DNA of 64,000 nucleotides, taken from positions 2,790,001 through 2,854,000 of the forward strand of contig MU271145.1 of NCBI GenBank assembly GCA_021432605.1, in the 5' to 3' direction. Source of the DNA: Coniochaeta sp. PMI_546. Taxonomy: Eukaryota > Ascomycota > Sordariomycetes > Coniochaetales > Coniochaetaceae. Under the pieces are notes generated by a model. The model ran no database searches. It was not told where the DNA came from and saw only the letters and a program-made list of their open reading frames with translations. Position 1 is the stretch's first letter, and the number at the start of each line of letters is the position of its first letter. This document shows positions 3,909-61,671 of the stretch, piece by piece. A program made the translations under genes and the position numbers.

Positions 3909-5567
3909 TTACCTGATAAGCTCCATCGCGTGCTGTATCGCGCGGTTTCGCGCCGCCCTCCTGCGACTCTCCAGGTCCATGCAGTACTGTCTGAGCTTAT
4001 CAATCTTCGCCGCCGCGCAGTTAGCTTCGTATTGCAACATTTCCCCGTCTGCGGTAGTGCGGTCGACGGCCCTGTCGAGCCGGAAGTAGTGGTTCTCCGT
4101 GAAGTCTTCCGTGAACACATCGGGTCGCCCACTGTCGCTTTGGGCTTCTGAGCAAAGCTGGGCGTTCAAGCTCAGGACTTGCTCAAAGGTAAGCCTGTTC
4201 TGCTCTTCATCCCCGCGCGTTCTGTCGTTCTCAATGTCTGCCTCTTCAGCAGTCTTCCTCTTGCTCAAGCCCGTCCCTATACTCACGAACACTCGCTCTC
4301 GACTTCCTAGTCGATCGTCTCCGAAGATCAAATCAACCTCCTTCCTGGCCAAATCAAGCGGATTGTAGAACCTCGCCAGTGAGCCAAGATTCCTGCCGGT
4401 CCCTTTTCTGCCAAGAAGCTCCGAGTTGTAAAAGGCCAGGTGCGAGACAGTCGCCATGACAGCCTCCACGATGGAGCAATTGGGGTCGACAGGATCACCT
4501 GGGCGATAAACGTTCCACTTGTAATCATGATCGACGGCATAACGATGGCTCCTCAGCTTCCTGGCCTGGATGTATTGTGTTCCGCCAACACGATCCTCCA
4601 AAGCACTCACAAGCACCTTGCCCAAGGCTGGATCGTCGCCTTCCAGCAGGTCTGTTCCTAGGTTTCGAAGCTTGACGAGCTCTGTGATCTTCTTCGCCAG
4701 CTTGTCTGCGGCCGTACTGGGCAGCATGACAGGCCCTTCCACAACCTTGATTCTATCCATCTGTGTCAGTGGTGTGAAAACGTCCTCTTCGACACCACGA
4801 TAGAATTGGATGACTTCCTCAACGGACATGCGGAGGCGGCCGAGCAGAATGGCAATCATTCCTCCGGTGCCATTACCAACGATGAGGTGGAAAACTTCAC
4901 ACGGCTTCAGGATCCTGCCAGGTTCTTGGTCTTGTAGCCTGAACCAGCGCGTGAGTTTTTTCATAAACGTGTCCAGCATCTCCAGCTGGATGGTCGTGCG
5001 GCTACCACCTCCATAATCTAGGGAAAGTACGATAGCTGGTCCGTCGGGGAAGGTCGCAATGGGCAATGCCGGTTCGCCCTCTTCCTGGATGAAGGGTGGA
5101 GGTTGAACTGTGCTATAAACACGGTCAATGGACGTGTCTTGGTCCAGATGCTCGAGCTTTCTAGTTATGACGTCCAGTGTCTTGTCCAATGTCTCGTCCA
5201 GATCTCTCTCGGCTCGCATCCACCCGGCTTGCGGTGGATCAACATGCTTTGTCTGCTCATCCTCTCGCCTTTCAACTTTCTCAGCAGGCTTATATTGCCT
5301 TTGAAAGGGTTGGCATGCGCGAGGGTCGGCATACATTGATCTGGGCAGGTAGTCATGTCCGACTAACCTTTTCGAAGTCTGAAGTGCTTCATCACTCAGT
5401 GATGGAAGCGGCGGTTCTCCTTCGCCCTTGCCTTTGCGTTCTTTTACTTTGTGATTGAGCGCTGTCTCGACAGTCTTCCCGGCTTCAAGGTCATCGTCAC
5501 TGCTATGGTCTTCGAATAAGTGTAACGCACGCATCTTGTGTTGCTTGTCCTCGTCTCTGGACGTCAT
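3909..5567 (-). CDS. patatin-like phospholipase-fold protein, probably catalytically dead
   Basis: A single-exon gene of 552 residues. The first 170 residues are charged and low in complexity. The rest follows the patatin fold: IVLSLDYGGGSR at 179-190 aligns with the oxyanion loop (DGGGxR), and the nucleophile elbow position reads GNGTGG at 231-236, followed by the typical MIAILLGRLRMSVEE helix. In active patatins this elbow is GTSTGG (GxSxG); here the nucleophile serine is a glycine (residue 233). The second catalytic element, a DGG/DGA motif after the conserved SIVEAVMAT helix, cannot be found either. Family knowledge therefore predicts loss of acyl-hydrolase activity while the fold is kept, so a binding or regulatory role is possible. 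No signal peptide or membrane segment is seen. It is convergent with the NFKBIL1-like gene. Confidence 0.8.
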   Translation of the reverse strand: MTSRDEDKQHKMRALHLFEDHSSDDDLEAGKTVETALNHKVKERKGKGEGEPPLPSLSDEALQTSKRLVGHDYLPRSMYADPRACQPFQRQYKPAEKVERREDEQTKHVDPPQAGWMRAERDLDETLDKTLDVITRKLEHLDQDTSIDRVYSTVQPPPFIQEEGEPALPIATFPDGPAIVLSLDYGGGSRTTIQLEMLDTFMKKLTRWFRLQDQEPGRILKPCEVFHLIVGNGTGGMIAILLGRLRMSVEEVIQFYRGVEEDVFTPLTQMDRIKVVEGPVMLPSTAADKLAKKITELVKLRNLGTDLLEGDDPALGKVLVSALEDRVGGTQYIQARKLRSHRYAVDHDYKWNVYRPGDPVDPNCSIVEAVMATVSHLAFYNSELLGRKGTGRNLGSLARFYNPLDLARKEVDLIFGDDRLGSRERVFVSIGTGLSKRKTAEEADIENDRTRGDEEQNRLTFEQVLSLNAQLCSEAQSDSGRPDVFTEDFTENHYFRLDRAVDRTTADGEMLQYEANCAAAKIDKLRQYCMDLESRRRAARNRAIQHAMELIR

Positions 5568-6383
5568 CTTTGTTTGCTCTGCTCGCGCCTAAAATTTCGT
5601 TTGAAGGGGTCGATGCTGCTTAAAAATATGGGAATCTGTCTGAGCTGTCAGTTTGGGCAGTAGTGGCTCTTTATAGCCTGCTGTCCAGGTCCGCTCGAGG
5701 TTCTTTGTTCGCGGGATATTGGTGACTCGATGCCAACACATGAGTATCATAAAGCACCTTCTGATCGCTAGCGCGAATTGCGACAAAGAGGGTGCCCAAA
5801 GCCTCGTGAATTTGCCAGTATCAATTCCTAAGTTATCCTGAGAGAAGTTGCGTGATTTGTTGCGGCCTTTGGGACCAGTGGTGCTGGTCAACGCTGTCGA
5901 ACGGGTTTCATTGTTGACTCCCCCTATTCACCTGGTCAGCCTTCAACATCAAAGATACAACACAACCAACGACAATATCACATAGCTTGGAAATCAGGGA
6001 TTCGGGTGTGGTGTGACGGTCATCGGTCTTTGTGTGAATTGGGTAATGACACGGCATTGTCTTCGCTCCAATCATAGTCACCATGCTAGCGTTTCAGTTG
6101 TCAAGGCAGATGATTTGTGGTGCAAAAGTGACTTTTGTTGCCTTTACTATTGGAATGCAAATCCAAATGACTCTATCGCACATCAGACTGCACCTGCGGG
6201 GACACCCAGCGACAGAGTATGTCGGTTTCTTTCCGATCCAGCTCTCGTAGTGATCAAGCGACACAGCAACCAACCAACTGGCCAGCTTATTAATCAATAG
6301 CCCTCTCAACGATATTACAAGTCTTTCCACCATACATTATCCTCCTTCTCCGGTCATCAACCCCGTAACTCACTCAAACTGAT
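5568..6383. other. intergenic region, no gene seen
   Basis: This is the upstream region of the patatin-fold gene and the downstream region of the Ser/Ala-rich gene. The short open frames on both strands have no recognisable features. Confidence 0.5.
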
Positions 6384-23000: not shown

Positions 23001-23457
23001 ACACTCGCCGAGCTCAACGTCAAATTGTGTCCTTAAAGAGCACCAGAACGACTGCTACACATCGCGTCTGCTGCCCGTATTGCTGGCTACCAACCACGGT
23101 TCCTGCGTTGTTGTGTCGCGACGTGTGGTAGGCGCAAGACCTGACAACGCCCATATGAGTCGTTCTGCAAGTGCCGCGGAAGAAGCAATTGCGACGCGAA
23201 GACCGCTCCTCTCACTAGCTTGGCACCAAGTCACACCGACACCGACGACCGCCACCCTAACTATGTTGTTGTTTCCAGGCGAAGGACATCAGACAGACTC
23301 TTGCCCGTCGCTCACAGGCCCTGCTGATTCAAGTAGAGCTGGACTAGACCGGCCGAGTTTCGTCCCTCCTATCACGCATATCCCCTGAGGTCCTATTGAC
23401 TCCGAGTAGAGTTCAAACTCATATAGGTACAGACTGCCTTGGATCTCATGCCCAGGC
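20029..23457. other. 3.4-kb gene-poor interval
   Basis: The 5' region of the GPI-protein gene lies at the left end. The 22.8-23.4 kb part has several overlapping open frames of up to 194 codons in different frames on the plus strand, but none has a recognisable domain or a consistent exon structure, and I do not call a gene. No transposon signatures are seen. Confidence 0.4.
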
Positions 23458-26400
23458 TCAACGCAGCACCCGGACGGTATACTTCTCAGCCGAGAACTCC
23501 AGTGTCCCTTGACGCTCCAGCTCGGGGGGATTGATGTAGAGTCTCACATTTATCCCGCTGCCGTACAACTCGAACACGCGGAATATGATGTACACCGTAT
23601 CGTCCGCGGCGGACAAATCTTTCATCTTTCGGACCGATCTGGTCAGTACCTCTACTATGGAAAGTGGACGGTCGGCTCTTACCTTGCCATGCTGGGTACC
23701 GCTCATATAGAACGGGGCCTCGAGCTCCTGCGGTGTGGATTTGACCTCGAAGTGGTACTTTGGCGTCTTGTTCTGCCAGAGTTGGGACGGGAGATAGCCA
23801 TTGTTTACGAGGTGCGTTGTGAAAACACCAGCGATGTCGTCATACTCCAGATCCGAGATCTCAAATCTGCCCGGCCAGGCAGCCATCGATGCATAATCCG
23901 GATGAGCCTTCACGGCCATCTTTATATTGCTGGTCCAGTTATCGTTACAGAATCCGGGCAGCGGCGGGTTCATCTTGGAGAGCATTTTGAAGACCTGTTC
24001 GAGATTTGGTCAGTATGCTTACTGTGGTATCGGGTCATTGACTATGAGTACTCACAAACAGCTCGCCCGCTGCGCCGATCTCGAAGGTCGAGAAGCGAGA
24101 CGAAGAGAAGGACTGTGCCGGCACGTTCAAACCCGGGCTGCCCAGAAGCGCGTCCCGGAGCGCTGACAGGTCGAACACACCGTGGCTTGGAAACTGAACG
24201 CTACGACCAGCTTGTACAACGTGGTCTAGGAGTTTCCGATACAGAGCGCCCGACTCGGCCGACTCTCACTGAGGATCTGGACTCAAGTGGGTCCTGGAGA
24301 AATACCCGCCGTGTGCGGGAATGCGGAATGGCGCTGGGCTAGGACTCGAAACCGAGAAGGGATCGGTCACCGGAGTATCCTGGCTCCAGCGTAGGTCGTC
24401 GGGGTTCGCCGATGGCTGGGGAGTGAAGAAGCCGCTGGACGCGACTGACGACACGCTGGGTGATCTGGCTGGCGTGTGGGGTGCGTCCGGCGCGGAGGCG
24501 ACACCGCGGACTTCTTCGTCTTCATTGTCCATATTCTGGATGTCGACATCGATGATTCCTCCTCTGTCAAGAACGTGTTGTACAGACGCTAGCCTCGCGT
24601 TCAGGAGGCCTATAACAAACCCGATGGCCTCTCTGTCCAGGGGCTGTGGTGCGTTGGTCCCAGGCTTGGTCATGATCCAAGAAACTAGCATTTTCGGCAA
24701 GGTGTCTTGAATGCAGACGTCTTGCCGTCCCTCGTCGTGGGGTATGTATATTTTGAGCGGCGTGTCGGGACTGTCGTCTATATAGACTTTGCCTTGCTCG
24801 AGCTCGACAGTGATAGCTTGGCCGTCCATAGTGAGACTGAGTTGTGATGTGATCCTGTTGGTCTCCCATGTCTCGGAAGTTCGCATCAGGTCGTAAAACT
24901 CCTGCCCGTCCCCTGAGAGCTTGGGGCTACCGAAGTGAGTTGCAATCCTGCGATATCACCGTTAGCTTATGGTTCAAGTCAGCCAATAGGGAGGGAAAGG
25001 TCGTTACCTGAGCAATCCGTGCGCTTTCTTCCGGATATCGTAGCGTGGCTCAGAAATCGGGAACTTGTCACCGGAACCCAAGATGGTGATCTCTTTCACT
25101 GTACATGATATATACCGATCTTCTAGTCCCGCCCATTTGAGGAACGGCTTGAGCTTTCGAACTTCGCGGTCGTCGAAGTCAAGGGTCTTGACCTTATCGT
25201 GAAACCTGTCACCGAGTGACTTATGATCAACGACCGCGAATTGAGTGTTGGCAGCGCGCAAGCAGACCTGGCCACCTGGGTATCGAATAGGCAATATCGG
25301 CTTCTCAAGGAGCGGCGGCGGCGTCTGACCTTCGCCAAGAATTTCGGTCTTGAGGAGCGAGTTGAAACTCCAGATTTGGGTCTTGAACTCAGCCACTGTT
25401 GTATCTTGTGGACTCAGGCTCAGGAGCTCGTCGTAAACCATACTGAGATTCAGCTTCTCTACTCCAACCTTCCGGACGAAGAAAGCTTCGAGTGTGGGAT
25501 ACTGCGTGGCCATGTTCGTCCTCGATCCAACCCCGGATGCGGATGCGGAAGACCAGATACAGTCCTCCACCCTCAGCCAGTTTGATTCACCTTCTGAGTC
25601 GACTGGGACGTAGATCAAGCCATCTTTCAAAAAATATTGCCTGCAGTTAGTTTTAGCTGTTTCCGAGCAGTCAAGTTGAAATAGACACTAGTATGAATCT
25701 ACCTCAACTCTTCCTTGTCCTCGGCGTTCAATGTCTCATCGTCGAGAAGTTCGTACTGCTTTTTAATACGCTCAATATCCGTGCTTTTCCAGTCCCTGAG
25801 CCACTCGAGCTCCTTGACAGAGGATATCCACGACCAACGTGGAATGTCCACTGCATCCCGGAATAAGGAAAGCACCGATTCTAATTTGATCTGTTCGTTC
25901 CCGAAAGCCGCACGGTAGATGGCGTCGATAGGGTAGTACCTCCTCATATCCGGATGGGCACCGAGAAGGCACTGCTCTGCCGTGCACCAGTCTGGTCCGC
26001 CATCCCCGTGGGACGGAATGAAAATACAGTTCGAGTTACAGAAGGTATCCCTAATAACACGTGAGCATTTATTCTCATACATGCTGGAATCTTTATGATG
26101 TGGTGATATACTTGACCAAGTCGAGCGCCTGTTGCGGTTCGCTGCTGCCGGTACAGTGTGCGTAGATGGCACTGTATAGATCTAGTATCCTGGACGGCCT
26201 CTGGACGCTGTCTGCCTGTGTGCTCGTTGCAATGGTGTTAAGCATAGTCAGGTAGAAAGAGAGCTCATGCTTGTAAACAACGCCAAAGTGTTTGAGAAAC
26301 CACCACCCTCCGAGATTCCCGTCAACAAGTGTCGTCTCAAGCTTGAGAAATGGAAGAAGCTCATCTTGGTCCATGAACCGTGCGGACAGCTGCTTCAGGT

Positions 26401-28957
26401 GAGGCCGGGGAAGGATGGTACCATCCAAGGAACGTTTCCTGCCCCTATCACAGAGTACCCTGATTGACTTGAGCGTTTGCACAAAATTCGCGCTCGATTC
26501 CACTCGGGCATCTCGGTGCGGCCACAAAAAGTGTAAGAGTCCGAGGAATTTGGCCGGAAAGTGCCTAGCTACATAAAGAACCTCCTTGGCAAGGGACAGC
26601 TGACCAGTGGCATCAGCGGATGCCAACCTTAAGCGCTTGCGGATTCCCAAGGACCGGTAGAGCCATTGTCTCCAGGCCTTCCCCGACTCAGTGCTCTCTC
26701 CGGAGCGCATCGGAGGGTCCCGTAGGTAGTCTGGGTGAAGATATTCGACCGCCAGCCCCAATTTTGCTGGGCTGTAGCTGCTCGTATCGTCACCGAGGTA
26801 GATGTCCTTTTGAAATGGCATACAGAATACCATGGAAGCGCTGATGACTGCAACCTTATCATAAAGCTTGGTGGATCCATCTTCAGGATGTGTCAAGTAC
26901 AAGAACCTCATGAAGGTGATCGAGGTGTCCTTCTCGAGATTGCTCGCTTGCCCCTGCCGGCCAACGTCGCGGAAGATTAGACTCCGGACCTCATCCGATG
27001 AGAGCGGTTTGGCGCCCAGAGTATGAAAGAGTTCCTTGCGCCTGGGATGACTGACGGTATCAGGATCGAGAAGTTGTAAGCCGAGCCCCTGCGGGATCTG
27101 GATGCCTTCACTTGTCGCTGGAAAATGGACGACGCGGTTTTCTGTGCTAACCCACTCTCCATTGTCTAGCGGCAGGAGTGCAAGACTCTTAAGTCTGGGT
27201 GTAAATTGCTGTAACTCAGCCCTTTTAAACGGAGCGATGAGAAGATTTGCAGCTCGCGAATGCCAATCATGGTCGGTATCCGGAGTCCGCATAATCGACG
27301 AAGAGCTTCGTAACTCCGTTTCCACTCTGGATACAACCTGCGCCCAGTTCATAACCGACAGTCCATAGTTTCTAAGGGTGTCGAGATCCCTGGTATCATA
27401 GTGGTCTTGGTAGATGTCTATCGCGTTCGGACCTTCTAGATCCCTGAATAGAGGCTGGCCATGCTTATCAACAAAGTCACTGCCTAGACGTCTAAGCTGC
27501 CTCATCGGTCGTAATTGAGATGGCTGGCCCCGAGGAACCATGACCTCGGCATCCACAATCAAGTCTTTCAGCGTGTCGACGAAAATCTTCCAGAATGGAT
27601 CGTCAGACGGAGATCCAGTAAGGCTGGGCAGATACGCCATCCACTTGAACCGCAGCTGAGGATGCTCGCACATCTGCTTCACTGCAGTGACGAACACAGC
27701 GGCCAACTGCCGGCAAAGCCCGCGGTTTCGAAGCGAGCTTGTGACGATATCCTCACGGTTGGCCATGGTCACGAAATCGCTGTGGATGAGAAACTATGAG
27801 GGGCGGTTTCGTCAGTACAGCAGGTTTCCTGGTCTCTATCAGCGGAACTAGACACTTACTTTGAAGCCGACTCGTCGGATGGGCAGAAAAGCAAATAGTT
27901 GTTGGGACTGGACAAGAGGTACGGATTGCTCTGTGAGAGGAAAAGCAAGAATGATATCTGCCATCGAATACGCTTTCCGCGCATGCTCTTCAGCCGAGTA
28001 GTCGCGGTTCTCGTTCGGGGCAAGTCCGGTGGCCTTGGCCGTTGTGACGTGGTAATATTGTTTGTCTTGTCGCGGTGCTTGCCCGGTTTCGGTCCTCACA
28101 GTCTGAAGCACAGCTCGATTGGTGTCGCCAACGGCCACCACTCTCGAGAGTACCGATGATGATTTCTCGTTCCCAGCATCGTCATGCAGATGAACCTCAA
28201 TACGCCTCAGTTTCTTCAAAAAGAGCAGCATCTCAGGCTTGAGGTCGTTGAGCTGATCGATGATGTTCTTACGCTGCTCCGCTCGGACAGCTGGGTCGTC
28301 ATCGTTGTCCAGATAAAATGTCATCCTCGTGAGCGGCCCTTCCAGCACCTCCGTAGTCTCCTGCCACTCGGGCGAGATCATCCCCATCCCAGAGTCACCG
28401 CGGCGATGCTTGAAGCTGAAGGAAAAGGGACCGGACTGGACCCAGACCTTCCAGGCCACCTTGAAGACGGACTTGAACCCGATGCCTTTCTCGCCGATGT
28501 AGCCCTGAGCGCCTAGTTTAGAGCTCTGACCCACATTGCAGATGGCTCTGAGATTAAGCTCTGTGAAACCGTCCTCGTTACATTCGACGACGATCTTGCT
28601 GTGATAGACACGAAATGCAATGTATGGGTCCTGCCTAGCGGAGTTTGCCTTCTCAAACTGATTGTCATCAGCGTTCTGGAGAAGCTCGAAGATGAAGCGT
28701 ACATCTTTTGAGTACAGGTTCTTAGCAAGACTAAGGCAAGTAAGTGGTCAGTTAGGGACTCTAAGCAGGATATATAATGGGTCAGATGCATACGTAATGA
28801 CGGTCGAGCCGATTAGTTTGTCTTTCATGAGAAAAGCTTCTTCCACCTGGAGCCGGACAGGAGCAGTCATCTCGTTGTAGACAGCCTCATCTAGGTGGCC
28901 GTGACCCTTAGCGATGCTCCTCACCAACTCTCTTGCTTGGGCTTCGGAGATGCTCAT
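23458..28957 (-). CDS. sacsin/NO VEIN-like GHKL ATPase with C-terminal nuclease-fold domain, interrupted by an in-frame TGA
   Basis: Eight exons: 28957..28794, 28730..27860, 27793..26112, 26050..25703, 25640..25008, 24947..24056, 23994..23683 and 23625..23458; the introns are 57-66 nt with good GT/AG ends. Together they make 1690 codons in one frame. The N-terminal GHKL (HSP90-like) ATPase shows the N-box ELLQNADDN at 70-78, NEDGF at 106-110 and GEKGIGF at 134-140. A long helical middle resembles fungal sacsin-like proteins. The C-terminal 180 residues (GAAGELF, then WTSNI, YDD and FEVKST) match the NO VEIN/DUF3883-type restriction-endonuclease fold. Codon 1460 is TGA (24268..24266), between a Ser/Pro-rich linker and the C-terminal domain, so the simplest product is 1459 residues without the nuclease-like domain. 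The molecular function in fungi is unknown. The start at 28957 is the first ATG before a conserved helix. Confidence 0.85.
24266..24268 (-). other. in-frame TGA inside the GHKL ATPase / nuclease-fold gene
   Basis: The reading frame before and after this codon is the same, and the residues after it (ESAESGALYRKLLDHVV) continue the family sequence as I know it. A C-to-T change of a CGA codon (CAG CGA GAG) would create it. It may be a true nonsense mutation, a sequencing error, or lie in an unusual intron. Confidence 0.75.
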
Positions 28958-31049
28958 TTTGGAAGCGATGTCCTGTACGTCAGGCAATGAGGGAGTCTTA
29001 TTTGGGAAGAGCCGCAACCATACAGCGATGCAATGCGGGAACAGCCGTCTGACGCCGGACTTGATCAATAAGTCCTATGATGATCGACAAACGGAAAATT
29101 GTGATATCTTGGATGAGAAAAAGGGAGAAGAAGTTGGTATTCAGCGATGCTGCAGTCGGAGGCAACCACATCGGCCTGGACTGGCCTTCCATTACTTATA
29201 TGCTGCCTTCCATTACTTATATGCTCGCCTCGTGAGGGAGGTAAGCCAACAGCATTGCACCGTGTCTGCAGCACCAACTGCAGCGTCGTGCGTCGTAGAG
29301 GGAAATTCTCGCACACAGTCATGGAGTGCCTAACATACCTACCGGTCACCATGTTGGCACATCTGAACCAAGGTACTATTCGCATATATAACGTAGACAA
29401 GTGACAGAAGGCTTGGACAACCAACACCGAGTCCGGCCCTCCTAGTGTGGCAGCGTGTCACGGACATGAAACCTCGAGGCCTGTTGGCTTAGCTGGAAGA
29501 CCAATGACAGCCCAATTTGCACGCGCGGGGTCCCTAAGGAATGGCCCAAGGCGACATGCTCGATATCTTGGTGCCAGAGTGGTTTCGTGTGCTTTTGGCC
29601 TCAGCAATGGAAGTCGGCTGTGTCTACCTTGATATCTAACATGGTGTAGACGAGGCTATATTGGTGACTTTCCAGCTTGTGTTGTGTGATGATACTGTCC
29701 GAGCGGGCAACGGGATCCGCACGCTAGCGGCTACTTCCCGTCCGCGAAGATCGCGCGCCGTAGTTAAGGTAGTGCGAAGCAGAACAGCCTGGAAAACTTC
29801 TTTAGCCAGGTTGTCACCATCGTGCGAGAGCGGCAAGAGCGGAAACGTATGCTTCTGCTGCAGCACAGCACTGACTGGCATTGTCCAACGAAACCAAGAA
29901 AGCTAATTGCTAGCTGAAAAGATGGGCCATCCTAAGGACTCGACCTCAAGTCGATTACTCGTCAATTGGCCAAGGCAAGGTACCTAAGGTATCCTACCTC
30001 ATGCTTCATCTCTAGCGGCAGGTAACGGTGCATCATGCGCAAGCAAGCCGCCCGCTCCCACCCGATCGTGGTGCATCAAGCTACGTTATGCAGTGGACTA
30101 CAAGTTGTCTAGGACTTGAAAGGTGTTTTTGCATTAATCGTGGGAAGCTCTACCCTACCTTACCTAAGGTAGTTCTAGACTTCCTCCGGATTATATCTCG
30201 CCGTCTTGGTAGGGCTGACCGGTAGGCTGCCTAGCGGTCCCGCAATCATGACGTTCCGGGGGGGATCCCACGCTGTCAAGCCTCACAAGGCCCCACCAAA
30301 CTACGGTGTTCGCGATACCCCACGTTTTCAGGCCTTTCTTGATTGGGCTGGGGTTGATCTGTGGCATCCCCGTCCACGATCCTGTGGCTAGTGCTTGGGT
30401 TGCCTCCTCCCTGTGCTGCTCAGCCCGTTGCGTAGCAAATGCGCAGCAAGCTCTGCTTTGCGCATTCCACGGCCCCGAAGGAAGATGCAAGAAAACACAT
30501 GAACCCTCACCTGGGGCCAGGACGGCCGTCAAAAATGGTGACCTTTCCTTTCCGCTGTCGTCTCAAAATGTTGTTTCTGCCACTTGCATCTGTCGTCGCG
30601 ACGTCGTATATCATTGACCTCTTTACGGTGCCAATGTCTGCTTCTCACTCCTCTTCCCTACCAGAGCCTGCTGAGAGCTCTGCTTCGTAGCTGTTCTCTC
30701 TGCAAGGCTACTTACTATTCTTGTGGCACTTCGTTTGCCTACTTGACTTTATAAATTTGGGCTCTTGATTTTCTGCGTAACTTTTGATTAACTTCATCCT
30801 CTTTTCTGCTGATTCTCAGAAATATGCCGACTTAGCATCGTCTTGGCTTCCAGACGATTTTTGAGCTGAAAATAGAGTTCAAGGGCCCTTTCGTGGAAGC
30901 CCATCGATCGCTTCCTTTTATACATACATACATCTATCTGCATCGGCCTTACACAGGCCGAAGGATTAGAAGCACCGGCTGCCTGTGAAGGCCAGCCCAA
31001 CTCTCGGCTCTCACCCAACTACGACGGGTGTTCGCACTCATTCGACATC
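28958..31049. other. 2.1-kb intergenic region, no gene seen
   Basis: This region holds the promoters of the divergent GHKL ATPase gene and C2H2 gene. It contains a 21-bp tandem duplication and two copies of the near-palindrome TACCTAAGGTA (29981-29991 and 30161-30171). No open frame is convincing. Confidence 0.45.
29184..29225 (+). repeat. 21-bp perfect tandem duplication
   Basis: The unit at 29184-29204 (starting GCCTTCCATTACTTATATGC) is repeated without change at 29205-29225. Two identical adjacent copies point to a recent replication-slippage or repair event. Confidence 0.85.
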
Positions 31050-45803: not shown

Positions 45804-47184
45804 TCACTTTGATGACTCCTCGCTATCTTCCTCCTCTGGCGACTCCTCTTCTGCTTCCTCTTCCTCTTTCGCATCTGCATCTGGAGGCTTTGCTAGCTCT
45901 AGAGTCTCCTTTGGCCCTGCAACGTTGTTCGTCGCTGACTGTGCCAATGACGTTGTCTGCGTCGCAGCCGGCACCGCCGTGGTGCTGGCAGCGGCTGTCT
46001 TGGCGGCCTCGGCCGCCTGCTTTCGGGCCTCCTCCTCTGCCTTCTTCCTCCGCTCCTCTGCCCTCTGCGCCGCCTCCGCAGCCTTCTTCGCCGCCTCGGC
46101 TGCCTTCTCCTCAGCGGTGGGGTGGATCTCACCCTCCTTGTCGTCACCCGGGCAGCGCTCCCTCTCCAGTTTCATGTCCATGATCAAGCTGAGCTCGGGA
46201 CAATACTTGAAGATTTCCTGGCGCTGCTTCTGATCCTTCCACACAGCGTCCGCCAGCTGCGTTCCGCCGTTGCGGACGTGGAATCCCATCGCATTCTCCT
46301 TGTATACATCCTCGACAGCCAGCATCCCGTCGCTCCCCGATGCAACCTTGGCTCCAGGCAGGATGTACATGCGTGTGCCGAACCACTCATCTTCGGGCTG
46401 GGTATTGTTGTACCGGGCCTGGAAATTCAGCACTCTCCTTATAGCCGACACGCGACGGAGCGAGAGGCCGCCATTGCCAGAGAACCTGTCGTCCGGCGTC
46501 CTCGGAGCGCCGGCCCAGTGCCAGTCCAGCCAGTCGTTCAGGCTCTCCTCCGAATTGGCGCACAAGATGCTGTCCGCCTCGTACTTGAGCAGCCACTCGA
46601 CTCCTGGCAGGAACTCGTCATAGAACCGCATGTCGGTCAGAAGCCGGAAGACCTTCTCCTTGCTTTCAATCTCCCACGGTTCCGGGAGCACCATGAGGTC
46701 GAGCTTCCCGATGACCTGCTGATGTTTGGTCGCATATGCCCTCCCAACGCTCACGACGCTCAGATTCGAACCGATGAAGAGGAAGCGCCAATCGGGTGGA
46801 ACCACTGAGATCATGTGGAGGATCTGAGGTACTAGGTGCGGTAGTGGTCGCGGCTCGATCAGGAGAGCCACCTTTGAGGAATTATACGCATCGCGTGGGT
46901 CGGTGCTGGGCTCTTGTGCCCAGTCAACCTTGATTTTGGGTATCTTTTGCCGTGCTTCCTCTATTCTCGACTTGATTCCGGCCTGGATCATAGGTTTGTA
47001 GTGTGGTAGGTTGGAGGCAAGCCACCATCTATGTTCGTAAATGTCAGAAACATGGCCGTAGAGATTGAGGCAGGAACCGTGCGCGCCCAGCAACTTACGT
47101 GAATGAGAGAGACACTAGAAGAAATAGCTTTAACTTTGTAATGGCGAAGACGCCCGGAGAATGCGGAGATGGAGCGGTAGCCAT
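45804..47184 (-). CDS. DUF5672 glycosyltransferase-like type II membrane protein (paralogue A)
   Basis: Two exons, 47184..47099 and 47028..45804, with a 70-nt intron (GTAAGT donor, CATAG acceptor); 436 residues. A short cytoplasmic tail is followed by a membrane anchor (KLKLFLLVSLSFTWWLASNL) near residues 16-36, the layout of Golgi type II enzymes. The DUF5672 domain covers roughly residues 85-310: KVALLIEPRPLPHLVPQIL, VVPPDWRFLFIGS, WLLKYEADSILCANSEESL, WAGAP and the strongly conserved GNGGLSLRRVSAI. After it comes a long Ala/Glu/Lys-rich coiled-coil-like tail (EEKAAEAAKKAAEAAQRAEE) ending in an acidic run. Members are thought to be sugar transferases because of their context and fold, but the donor and acceptor are unknown. 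It is head-to-head with paralogue B. Confidence 0.85.
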
Positions 47185-49274: not shown

Positions 49275-50699
49275 ATGAGCGTTCTCAAGCACCTTACCAG
49301 CCACAGCCATGTGCTAGACGACCTCACCATGAACGACCTGTGGGATGGCTTCAAAGGCCTTGTGCTGGCGGCATGGGCGAGGACGACCCGGCGGATGCGC
49401 GCGGCCGGCGCATTTCTCATCTTCTTGTATGGCATCCTACCACCCCATGACGAGAGTATACCTTCCGAGGTCGACTAACATCGTACTCACAGATCTCTCA
49501 CAATCTACCTATCATTACCAACCCTCCAAAACCTAGAATACACCCTCCCCAAAGTGTCACTAGAATACCACTACGAACAACAAGCCTCAAAGTTCAACGA
49601 GTCCAAAGTCGCCCTCCTGATCGAGAACCGCATCAACCCGATCCTCGCCCCGCTGATGCTGCACTTCATCTCGGTCGTGCCGCCAGACTGGCGCTTCCGC
49701 TTCATGGGCAGCGTCGACAGCGTCGAGTACCTGAACAAGAGCATGGCCATCCGCGAGCACGTGGCCGCCGGGAAGCTGGACCTGACCTACATCCCCGCCA
49801 ACATGAGCACGGGCTCGCAGGAGGAGATTAGCCGGTTCCTGACCAACCTGTGGCTGTACGAGGTCGTGCTGCAGCCGGCCGAGTGGCTGCTGGTCTTCCA
49901 GACCGACAGCATCCTGTGCGCCAACAGCCGGCAGACCCTGAACGACTACCTCGAGTTCGACTGGGTCGGCGCCCCGTGGAACCCCCACGGGAGGTTCGGC
50001 GGCAACGGCGGGCTGTCCCTGCGGCGCGTGAGCGCCATCATCGACGTCCTCCGCAACCAGGAACGGGTGCCGGGTTCGGAACCCGAGGACGTCTGGCTGA
50101 CGGAGCGGCTGGGCCACAGGCCGGGCTCGAAGCTGGCCAACGGCACCATCTCGTCCACCTTCTCGGGCGAGATGCACAGCGGCGACGCGACCCACCTCGA
50201 CATCGGCGGGAAGTCGTCTTCGTCGTCGTCGTCCAAGCCCGGCGCGGGCGCGCCGCAGTTCAACGGCGGCAAGAAGGTGTACAACAGCTCGCTCGAGGCG
50301 GCGGAGCACGGGGAGTACGTGGAGGAGCTGGACTCGTGGCGCGACGGCTTCTACGAGCCGATGGGGTACCACACGGGCGGGAGCGGGGTGACGCTGCACG
50401 GCGCCATCTGGGGCACGCCGGCGCTGAGGAAGCACATCTGGGAGTACTGCCCGGAGGTCAAGATGACGCTCGCCATGGACGCGGCCAAGTACGTGCCCGG
50501 GTCGTGCGGGAGCAACTGGAAGAGGTGGGAGGCGGGCGAGGCCGCGGCCGGGGCCGGTGGACTCGAGGAGAGGGGGGAGGTGGCGATGCCTGGTGCTGGG
50601 GCCGAGGTGGACATTGGGTCGGCGGATATTGGCTATGGGAGCGAGACTATTGACGGGAAGGAGTATCCTGTTCTGCCACCCGGGTTTAGGCCGTGGTGA
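49275..50699 (+). CDS. DUF5672 glycosyltransferase-like type II membrane protein (paralogue B)
   Basis: Two exons, 49275..49426 and 49493..50699, with a 66-nt intron (GTATGG donor, CTAAC branch, CACAG acceptor); 452 residues. The membrane anchor is formed across the junction (AGAFLIFLLSLTIYLSL, about residues 44-60). The DUF5672 domain parallels paralogue A closely: SKVALLIENRINPIL, FISVVPPDWRFRFMGS, WLLVFQTDSILCANSRQTL, WVGAP and GNGGLSLRRVSAI. The TDS/ADS motif in this region could be the metal-binding position of a GT-A fold (inference). After the conserved core it has a Ser-rich insert (SSSSSSSKPG) and a different, Gly/Glu-rich C-terminus instead of the coiled coil of paralogue A. The exon is very GC-rich at third codon positions. 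Confidence 0.87.
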
Positions 50700-58776: not shown

Positions 58777-61671
58777 ATGATGGTGCTTTTTTTTTATTCT
58801 TGGTGGAGGATATTTGAGGCACGCGTGGGGGGTTTTTTGTTTGCTTTGGAGGGAAGTTAGGGAGGGGAGGAATGATGGCTTTCAGCTGGACTGGAGGTGG
58901 AGATTAGCACTCGTGGATCCTACTGGGAGACCACATGGAAGGGGGAGATTCCTCTGGAGAAGGAGACATGGATGGAGAAGCGACTGTGGTCGTTATCCAT
59001 TCAGGGGAATGTACTGTGTAAGGATATCGGCACTCGTACAAGGGGATAGGAAGGACAGCTTGATATCTGTTGGTTACTGATTTGTCGCTCATCCATACGG
59101 ACCATACCCGCCTGCATGACTCGAGCACAGCATCTAGGTTCCCCCCTAATGATCCAGGCTAGATACACCAGCGGTCCACATCCCACAGACGAGGATGCGG
59201 CTCATCTGAAAAATCTTAACGACGCCCGCCTCCAGCAGCGGGGATGTAGCTCATCTGGTAGAGCGCGTGCTTAGCATCCATCTGACGAGTGAATCGTCAG
59301 CACATGCTCCTGCACGAGGTACTGGGTTCGACTCCCAGCTTCTCCACGGTTTCGTTTCGTCTCTTTTTTTTTTCGCTTCCGGGACATCCATACCCAAAGC
59401 ATCCACCACCCAACAATTAGACCTCCCAACCCTCCTCACATCGTGCTCAAGCGTGGATGTGGTTTGGCCAAGACACACCCAGGCGGTGAGCACAAGACGA
59501 AAGAACCGGACCGAAAGGCTGACCCCAGACTTGTCAGTCGAGTCGGACGAAAAACTCCCCAAAATCCGAAAGCGTCGCATCGGGGATCTGTGATACCTTC
59601 CTTTCAGGTACCTCCCTTGGCCGCATGGGGCCACGCACGCAAATGGTTACACGAACCACTCGACCAGAGAATAGGCGCGCGGAGACGCCGGACATGGCCG
59701 AGGCTCACAGCCACATTGCATGTCCTCGACGTCCGACAGACCACACCAGGCAGGTTCCGCGCAGTCTATCATAATGTGCAGACCGGATTCCACATGGAGT
59801 AGAAGACCCGAATGCCACACCCCCAGAGGAATGAGAGACAGGGTGTCAGCAGGAGCCAAGTAACCGGTAGTCCCGGGCGAACGAATCCGGCATGTTAGCC
59901 CCGACGTGCGTGATGGGCTTCGGCGAGGGGGCATTGGTAAGCCGGTGCATGGTGCAGAAAGTTGTTCCTCGACCATACTTGGGTCTGTAATGCAGGAAGA
60001 ACGGGGGGAAGGGAAATTCCGCTCGTGACGTGTGCCAATTTATTGCTCGAAGGAGCATGGGGACGCAACGGCATTCAACCTTTTTGTGCATCATAGGGCT
60101 GAGCACCAAATACGTCCCTTCTAGGTTCTCGGGTCAGCAGGGAGACCACATGGGATTAAGCTTAGAAGTGCAACTAGTTCTTTGAGCTTGACCCGAAGTG
60201 GATAACAGGACCGGGGAAGACTCAGAGGTTTGGCATTGAGATGTGCTTATGTAGTTCATGAGGAGGGGATACTTGTTGAGCAATACGCGTGCTGTTCCAA
60301 GCAAAAGTAGAAAGCTTCCCACGCAACTTGAGGCGTGTCCGTCTGGAAGGTTGGGCTGGCTTACATCTGACGAGCCAGATGTAGCCAGGATAATCACGGA
60401 TTATAAAACATGGGATAAAAGAAAGGCCCCCACTTAGAGGTCTTCAAATGATCATGGCGATGTCGGACGACAGCGGAACGGGATGATCTGATGGATCATC
60501 TTTCTATGGGACGAGAACACAAGACGAACAGAGTACATAGTTCAACCCAAGAGTAACATGAAGTAAAGAAGGGAAGAAACCTAAGAGATAGTGGCAATGG
60601 CAGCAGCGGGTAAAGACGGCCCGGCCAGGAACTGGGGGCTAAATGGCAGGCCGACTGGGTGAAGCAGAGGTTGTCGGAGGCGTGGTTGCTCGCCTGCAGG
60701 CTCAAGACGTGCCGTTCATGCGGTCTGGCTTCGGGTCCAGGGCAGGCAACATGATCCGCGAAACACCACACCTTGCACACTTTCTACTAGGGCTAGAGAG
60801 AATGTGAACAGTGGTAGGGAACTCTAGACATTTCAACACGCAGGATTGGCATGGCATGCCTTGATGAGAAGGGCAGAAGTGAACTAGGCGAAAGTCGTAA
60901 TGTTAGCGAACGAGGAGAAATTGTCTGGGATAGACCTCCAATCGTTTTGGCTCGAGGTCCAGAACAGGCGCAGTCGTCCAGTCAGAGGAGCAAGGAGGCA
61001 AATGCTACCTTTGACTCGATACCCCAAGTGATCGTCGGCATGGACATGGGAGCCGGCGTGGCCTGCTCGGGATGGGTCACGAGTGTTTTGGGCAGCCATG
61101 GGTGTTGTTAGCAAGCCTGGCAAGGTATGCGATGGCGTGCATTCGACTCGCATCCAAGGCCGACGTGGCTGTAGGCCACAGGCCCCTAGGATGTACGATG
61201 CAAGGATGTTCGGGCTGAGAGATGGCGAGAGTCGATCATTGGCAGGATGGTGTCGATGTCGACTGTCGAGGTCAGAGAAGCCCAAACCAGCACAAGAGGG
61301 CGCGTGTTTCAGAGTCCCGGTTGGGTGTCTTTCGTTATGCGTCTGGCTCTCCTTTTTTCCTTCTCTGGGCCGTCTGAACTGCTGTGGAAAGGGATCTATA
61401 AACCCGAGATGGCCAGCTCGAGTCAATGCAAGCCCGTTAGTAGATCTGATCTCTTTAACGCTTTTCCGGTGTGTCGTTGAAAAAAGTGAAGCTATTCAGA
61501 GCAGCATTCATTCCAGTTGCTCAGTCGCTCTTTCCCTGGGCTCCATTAATTAATTAATTACTGTGACCCCTGTCTTGGCCCCAACACGCTTATCGATAGC
61601 AGTCCTGCAGCTACTGCTAGCGCCCGCAAGGTACCCTAAGTCCAGGTGTCCTAAGTCCAAGGTACACAGCC
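58777..61671. other. 2.9-kb region holding only a tRNA gene
   Basis: Apart from the tRNA-Ala at 59.2 kb no gene is supported; short open frames on both strands lack domains. Upstream of the alpha-actinin ATG there is a TTAATTAATTAATTA run (about 61547-61561) and a repeated CCTAAGTCCA motif (61634-61643 and 61650-61659), which probably belong to its promoter or 5' untranslated region. Confidence 0.45.
59240..59346 (+). tRNA. tRNA-Ala (anticodon AGC) with intron
   Basis: The cloverleaf is complete. The acceptor stem GGGGATG pairs with CTTCTCC and has the G3-U70 pair that identifies alanine tRNAs. The D stem is GCTC/GAGC, the anticodon stem CGTGC/GCACG, and the T arm CTGGG-TTCGACT-CCCAG. The anticodon AGC is at 59273-59275. 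A 34-nt intron (59277-59310) sits at the canonical place one base after the anticodon and folds into a 7-bp hairpin (CTGACGA/TCGTCAG). Mature length is 73 nt with discriminator A. One U-U mismatch (positions 6 and 67) weakens the acceptor stem. Confidence 0.93.

What the first reader, a model, noticed from the sequence alone, without database searches (positions are those of the whole stretch)
23458..24947. In-frame TGA cuts the nuclease-fold domain off a 1690-codon GHKL ATPase gene
All eight exons join in one frame (total 5070 nt, divisible by 3), yet codon 1460 is TGA (24268..24266). The frame before and after is identical and the sequence after it is family-like, so this is neither a frameshift nor a wrong exon join. 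It falls in the Ser/Pro-rich linker, so the ATPase and middle region stay intact and only the C-terminal NOV/DUF3883-like domain is lost. In-frame GT...AG alternatives that remove it (117 or 99 nt) both need an unusual GAG acceptor ending at 24254 and weak donors (GTGACC or GTTTCG). One C-to-T change in a CGA codon would explain it.
Basis: partly seen in the sequence, partly recalled or inferred. Interest (0 to 1): 0.75.

Follow-up and report, generated by a model that had tools for sequence, protein, structure and literature searches.

The report
Premature stop in fungal Tiamat-like gene
A single early stop signal in an otherwise healthy-looking fungal gene, a relative of bacterial antiviral proteins, should cut off its nuclease-like tail; it is most likely an ordinary recent broken copy or a sequence error, although a splice that would skip the stop has not been ruled out.

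Summary
Eight exons on the minus strand (28957..23458) join into 5070 nt with one stop before the end: TGA at 24268-24266, codon 1460 of 1690. The 229 codons after it look like real coding sequence: codon usage matches the rest of the gene, and a profile of prokaryotic NOV_C/DUF3883 domains matches the tail (hhalign score 39.1; best of 300 shuffles 18.0), with the nuclease-type Asp and Lys kept. Direct Pfam search of the tail finds nothing. The part before the stop is a sacsin/HSP90-type ATPase matching the TmtA defence profile (E 3.9e-70).

The TGA lies inside GTGAGA, a donor-like hexamer; removing 24269-24201 (69 nt) or 24269-24138 (132 nt) keeps the frame. Neither has a CTRAY branch site, and 113 of 2088 TGAs in the window sit in GTGAG, so I rank this below a plain nonsense allele.

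The stop lies 210 and 522 nt before two exon junctions, so nonsense-mediated decay is expected. No fungal relative, reads or second strain were available. Verdict: probably a recent loss-of-tail allele, or an error.

The parts
23458..28957 (-). Whole gene, eight exons, 1690 codons with the in-frame TGA
   Evidence: Exon phases fit, two stops only
24266..24268 (-). In-frame TGA, codon 1460
28445..28699 (-). Sacsin/HSP90-type ATPase core (FELLQNADD, GEKGIGFKSVF)
   Evidence: NF047352 match at G000:C3:2818445-2818699; Pfam SACS 2.1e-10; alignment with 5 relatives
24201..24269 (-). Candidate in-frame intron, 69 nt, GTGAGA..TAG, containing the TGA
   Evidence: no CTRAY branch site
24138..24269 (-). 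Candidate in-frame intron, 132 nt, GTGAGA..CAG, containing the TGA
   Evidence: no CTRAY branch site
24056..24076 (-). GAAGELF at the start of the NOV_C-like domain (exon 6)
   Evidence: tail residue 64; similarity to the G..xE motif of relatives by eye
23458..23994 (-). NOV_C-like domain, exons 7 and 8 (intron 7 at 23682-23626)
   Evidence: hhalign score 39.1 against shuffles <=18.0
23839..23841 (-). Invariant Asp codon of the nuclease-type motif
   Evidence: A2 column D57, 17 of 17 rows
23740..23748 (-). Glu-Val-Lys of the nuclease-type motif (Lys invariant)
   Evidence: A2 column K90, 17 of 17 rows

Best explanation
A fungal gene, single-copy by the searches made, for a large sacsin/HSP90-type ATPase with a C-terminal NOV_C-like (restriction-endonuclease-like) domain, related to the prokaryotic TmtA defence protein, carries a recent nonsense codon in the linker between the two halves. 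Translation should stop at codon 1460 and give a 1459-residue protein without the NOV_C-like arm. Because two exon junctions lie downstream, much of the mRNA is probably removed by nonsense-mediated decay, so the allele is likely strongly reduced or null. Shown: the stop, the intact frames, the family relations. Inferred: mRNA decay, loss of function, recent and perhaps strain-specific origin.
For: One disabling change in 1690 codons and none further in the 229 tail codons. If the tail decayed neutrally, zero further disablements bounds the time since loss at about 0.03-0.06 substitutions per site (assumed ts/tv and indel rates). Tail codon usage is still typical. TGA lies 210 and 522 nt upstream of the exon 6/7 and 7/8 junctions; in Neurospora, introns near or after a stop can trigger decay through the exon junction complex (PMC7746235, passages). 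The tail's first Met is residue 74, after GAAGE at 64, so restarting would not give the whole domain. TGA followed by GA is not the UGA-CU readthrough motif (PMC4207609, passages). TGA is also the gene's own terminal stop. No clear RIP signature: TpA/ApT is 0.60 in the 1 kb around the TGA and 0.77 in the tail, against 0.68 window-wide.
Against: No reads, transcripts or second strain, so neither base nor transcript is verified. A donor-like hexamer overlaps the stop exactly. The 1459 codons upstream show no decay, which also fits a sequence error or a bypass that keeps the protein whole. In the tail the second RIP index falls to 0.98, against 1.2 window-wide.
Confidence: 0.6

Rival explanations
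1. The TGA is a base-calling or assembly error and the gene is intact.
For: The gene is otherwise perfect over 1689 codons and the tail still looks constrained.
Against: The contigs seen are long (2.9 and 2.4 Mb) and the site is not a homopolymer; nothing measures base accuracy.
Confidence: 0.2
2. The TGA lies in an unannotated in-frame intron (exitron) from 24269 to 24201 (69 nt) or 24138 (132 nt). Splicing removes the stop and linker residues before GAAGE and yields a protein that keeps the NOV_C-like domain.
For: GTGAGA is one of 3 of 245 GTs in the CDS with so high a donor score (recalled frequencies), and the only one with in-frame CAG/TAG partners at 50-140 nt; such introns cover 45 of 1690 codons. 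69 nt is close to the gene's 57-66 nt introns.
Against: No CTRAY branch site in either candidate while 6 of 7 introns of the gene have one. 113 of 2088 TGAs in the window sit in GTGAG. It would remove 23 or 44 codons that look coding; no transcript data.
Confidence: 0.12
3. The stop is bypassed after transcription: A-to-I editing of the TGA, or programmed readthrough.
For: Premature stops in filamentous ascomycete genes are corrected by editing in sexual tissue (PMC7306014, PMC6160140, passages).
Against: Fungal editing prefers hairpin loops and the stop editing described often turns UAG into UGG; here the A of TGA is paired in the predicted fold and the region is not unusually structured (z 0.67). 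The context TGA-GAG lacks UGA-CU.
Confidence: 0.05

Closest known systems
TmtA (PADLOC profiles; the system name Tiamat is recalled)
   Same: ATPase and middle region collinear with PDLC03972 (residues 50-742 on 27-685 of 1302, E 3.9e-70); the tail hits the end of the same profile weakly (1181-1287, E 0.0033).
   Different: A eukaryotic gene with introns; no profile match over residues 743-1459 to PDLC03972; defence activity untested; TGA before the C-terminal domain.
NOV_C / DUF3883 domain (PF13020), called a novel REase domain in PMC3710099 (passage)
   Same: Asp and Glu-x-Lys pattern and C-terminal position.
   Different: Too divergent for direct Pfam detection; extra residues between Asp and Glu-x-Lys.
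Premature-stop correction of the puk1 kind in Fusarium (PMC7306014, passages)
   Same: Premature stop in an otherwise intact fungal gene.
   Different: TGA with a paired A; no editing evidence.
Ordinary nonsense (loss-of-function) allele
   Same: Single stop, rest of the frame intact.
   Different: Nothing found here sets it apart.

Membership tests
TmtA-like ATPase | ATPase and middle region match a TmtA profile | tested here: met
   8 TmtA profiles match, best E 3.9e-70 over residues 50-742
TmtA-like ATPase | C-terminal end matches the same profile in order | tested here: inconclusive
   Tail on 1181-1287 of 1302, E 0.0033; a stretch between is unmatched
TmtA-like ATPase | Antiviral activity | not testable with these tools
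   needs experiment
NOV_C (PF13020) | Reaches the Pfam gathering score | tested here: not met
   No hit to the tail at E<=1; 0 matches in the own-genome search
NOV_C (PF13020) | Homology by profile-profile comparison | tested here: met
   hhalign prob 83.9, E 7.7e-6, score 39.1; 300 shuffles at most 18.0, seven upstream pieces at most 22.1. Plain hmmsearch is weaker: rank 2 of 2002, 1 of 2000 shuffles higher
NOV_C (PF13020) | Conserved Asp and Lys | tested here: met
   Invariant in 17 of 17 rows of A2 with the window
NOV_C (PF13020) | Nuclease fold by structure comparison | tested here: inconclusive
   AlphaFold2 mean pLDDT 57.4, pTM 0.53; fold searches not answered
Exitron | Splice sites and length divisible by 3 | tested here: met
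   24269-24201 and 24269-24138
Exitron | Branch-site motif like the gene's introns | tested here: not met
   No CTRAY in either; 6 of 7 introns have one
Exitron | Spliced transcript | not testable with these tools
   no RNA data
UGA-CU programmed readthrough | UGA followed by CU | tested here: not met
   TGA GAG against PMC4207609
A-to-I premature-stop correction | Edited A in a hairpin loop | tested here: not met
   Paired in the MFE and centroid models
Nonsense allele | TGA confirmed in reads, intact allele in relatives | not testable with these tools
   no reads or fungal relatives held

The most novel reading that the evidence does not exclude
Stop codon and 5' splice site share the same letters: in this fungal relative of an antiviral ATPase-nuclease, in-frame splicing of 24269-24201 makes the ATPase-nuclease, while unspliced mRNA ends early and decays. 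One element would gate a potentially self-harmful nuclease arm.
Probability: 0.08. Interest if true: 0.65.

Novelty: new member of a known kind. Interest (0 to 1): 0.3.

Why it matters
If the stop is real and fixed, this fungus or strain has lost the nuclease-like arm of an ATPase-NOV_C protein related to bacterial TmtA: a natural knock-out of a gene type for which my paper searches found no fungal study. If the overlapping donor is used, it is a simple splicing switch for that arm. If it is an error, one base call is wrong. None of these is far from known kinds.

Tried and rejected
Rejected: frameshift or wrong join (all phases fit); TGA as a sense codon (also the terminal stop); RIP (index cut-offs recalled); UGA-CU readthrough; editing hairpin; restart giving a whole NOV_C-like domain; a second copy. 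For the last, protein searches with the tail and with the ATPase core found only this locus (best candidates only). A sacsin-ATPase family search gave 4 places: this gene, a DUF3684 protein and a MutL-type protein (Pfam), and an HSP90 recognised by eye; Pfam shows no NOV_C in the two scanned.

Led nowhere: tail against PDB, plasmids, NCBIfam, PHROGs and viral contigs; ATPase part against viral contigs; 5.8S rRNA search meant to identify the organism; harvesting introns from the window to train splice weights (2 and 15 noisy candidates, not used); paper searches for exitrons in fungi (listing only) and Tiamat (listing; PMC12629846 passages), which describe bacteria. Splice scores use recalled fungal consensus frequencies.

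84 ORFs matched the upstream part, 78 with complete C-termini, 26 of these matched the iterated NOV_C profile. A2 used 16 of the 26 plus the window, A3 used 18 of the 26, chosen by judgement. Of 19 plasmid hits 8 were fetched and 6 scanned.

Full report
Observation. The minus-strand gene 28957..23458 has eight exons whose phases fit; the joined 5070 nt hold two stops, codon 1460 (TGA, 24268-24266) and codon 1690. Its seven introns are 57-66 nt long with GT..AG ends, and 6 of 7 carry a CTRAY branch site.

Is the tail real coding sequence? Very likely. Its 229 codons are open (6.6e-5 by composition), the two other forward frames of the joined tail hold 10 and 6 stops, synonymous codon choice lies 4.4 s.d. 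above a base-composition null and within the range of the upstream part, and GC3 is 0.71 against 0.62 upstream. Pfam, NCBIfam and PHROGs scans of the tail give nothing at E<=1; PADLOC gives two weak hits, one of them the end of the TmtA profile PDLC03972 (1181-1287 of 1302, E 0.0033). A profile of 18 prokaryotic NOV_C domains, from proteins whose ATPase part is related to this gene, matches the tail with hhalign probability 83.9 and score 39.1; 300 shuffles reach at most 18.0 and seven upstream pieces at most 22.1. Plain hmmsearch with an iterated profile is weaker: rank 2 of 2002, with 1 of 2000 shuffles above. The Asp and the Lys of the D..ExK pattern are invariant in 17 of 17 aligned rows including the window. 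The model of the exon 7-8 piece has low confidence (mean pLDDT 57.4, pTM 0.53), and the fold search did not complete.

What the gene is. The upstream part has a sacsin/HSP90-type ATPase (Pfam SACS 2.1e-10; NCBIfam 1.8e-16) and matches eight TmtA profiles of PADLOC, best E 3.9e-70 over residues 50-742. Of 19 plasmid records with a relative, 8 are annotated DUF3883 at the match; one lies next to qatABC. Of 6 proteins scanned, 5 carry NOV_C over the Pfam cut-off near the C-terminus; all 6 match SACS, 4 over the cut-off. In the wider set 26 of 78 complete C-termini match the NOV_C profile, so the fusion is common but far from universal. DUF3883 is called a novel REase domain in PMC3710099 (passage). 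In the window's genome (33.5 Mb, 24 contigs) only this locus matches by protein; the other sacsin-type places are a DUF3684 protein, a MutL-type protein and an HSP90.

What the stop does. If translated normally the product ends after 1459 residues. The stop lies 210 and 522 nt upstream of two exon junctions. [quoted passage not shown] Restart at the next in-frame ATG (tail residue 74) would lose GAAGE at 64. With no further disablement, neutral decay of the tail could hardly have lasted longer than about 0.03-0.06 substitutions per site (assumed rates).

Alternatives. The enumeration found 47 candidates of 40-300 nt; the best use the donor GTGAGA at 24269, which contains the TGA itself, with acceptors at 24201 (TAG, 69 nt) or 24138 (CAG, 132 nt). 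In the whole CDS 3 of 245 GTs score as high, and only this one has CAG/TAG partners in frame at 50-140 nt. Against: neither has a CTRAY branch site, and 113 of 2088 TGAs in the window sit in GTGAG, so the coincidence is at the few-percent level. Readthrough lacks the UGA-CU motif (PMC4207609). Fungal A-to-I editing prefers hairpin loops (PMC6160140) and often turns UAG stops into UGG (PMC7306014); here the A is paired and the fold is unremarkable (z 0.67). RIP is not clearly indicated, although one of two indices is low in the tail (0.98). A sequence error cannot be excluded.

Verdict. Most likely it is an ordinary recent nonsense allele of a fungal TmtA-like ATPase-NOV_C gene (0.6), next a sequence error (0.2), an exitron (0.12), or editing/readthrough (0.05). 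Interest is modest. The overlap of stop and splice donor is the one feature that could make it more than ordinary, and RNA-seq over 24.0-24.5 kb would settle it.

Noticed in passing
window 23410-24342 (+): A 310-codon stop-to-stop frame runs antisense across the tail and the TGA site; probably a by-product of GC-rich third positions.
   Followed up: no
window 45804-47114 (-) and 49479-50699 (+): Two divergently transcribed related genes; the first is a DUF5672 protein, the second similar by eye. A likely old local duplication.
   Followed up: partly
window 59240-59346 (+): Rfam finds a 107-nt tRNA (50.2 bits) that ARAGORN does not report: perhaps an intron-bearing tRNA.
   Followed up: partly
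window 3909-5588 (-): Patatin-like protein just under Pfam's cut-off (26.3 of 27.7 bits), with GNGTGG where GxSxG is expected, by eye; possibly inactive.
   Followed up: no
L096 1130-6634: Another sacsin-type ATPase gene of this genome: one 1834-codon open frame, DUF3684 family, ending by eye in a HELAHN zinc-peptidase-like motif.
   Followed up: partly
L006 5264-12924: NERD-domain gene, SACS-NOV_C gene and qatABC in a row on a Sulfuricurvum plasmid: a likely defence island.
   Followed up: no
window 29184-29230: A 21-nt tandem repeat of 2.2 copies about 230 bases upstream of the gene's ATG.
   Followed up: no
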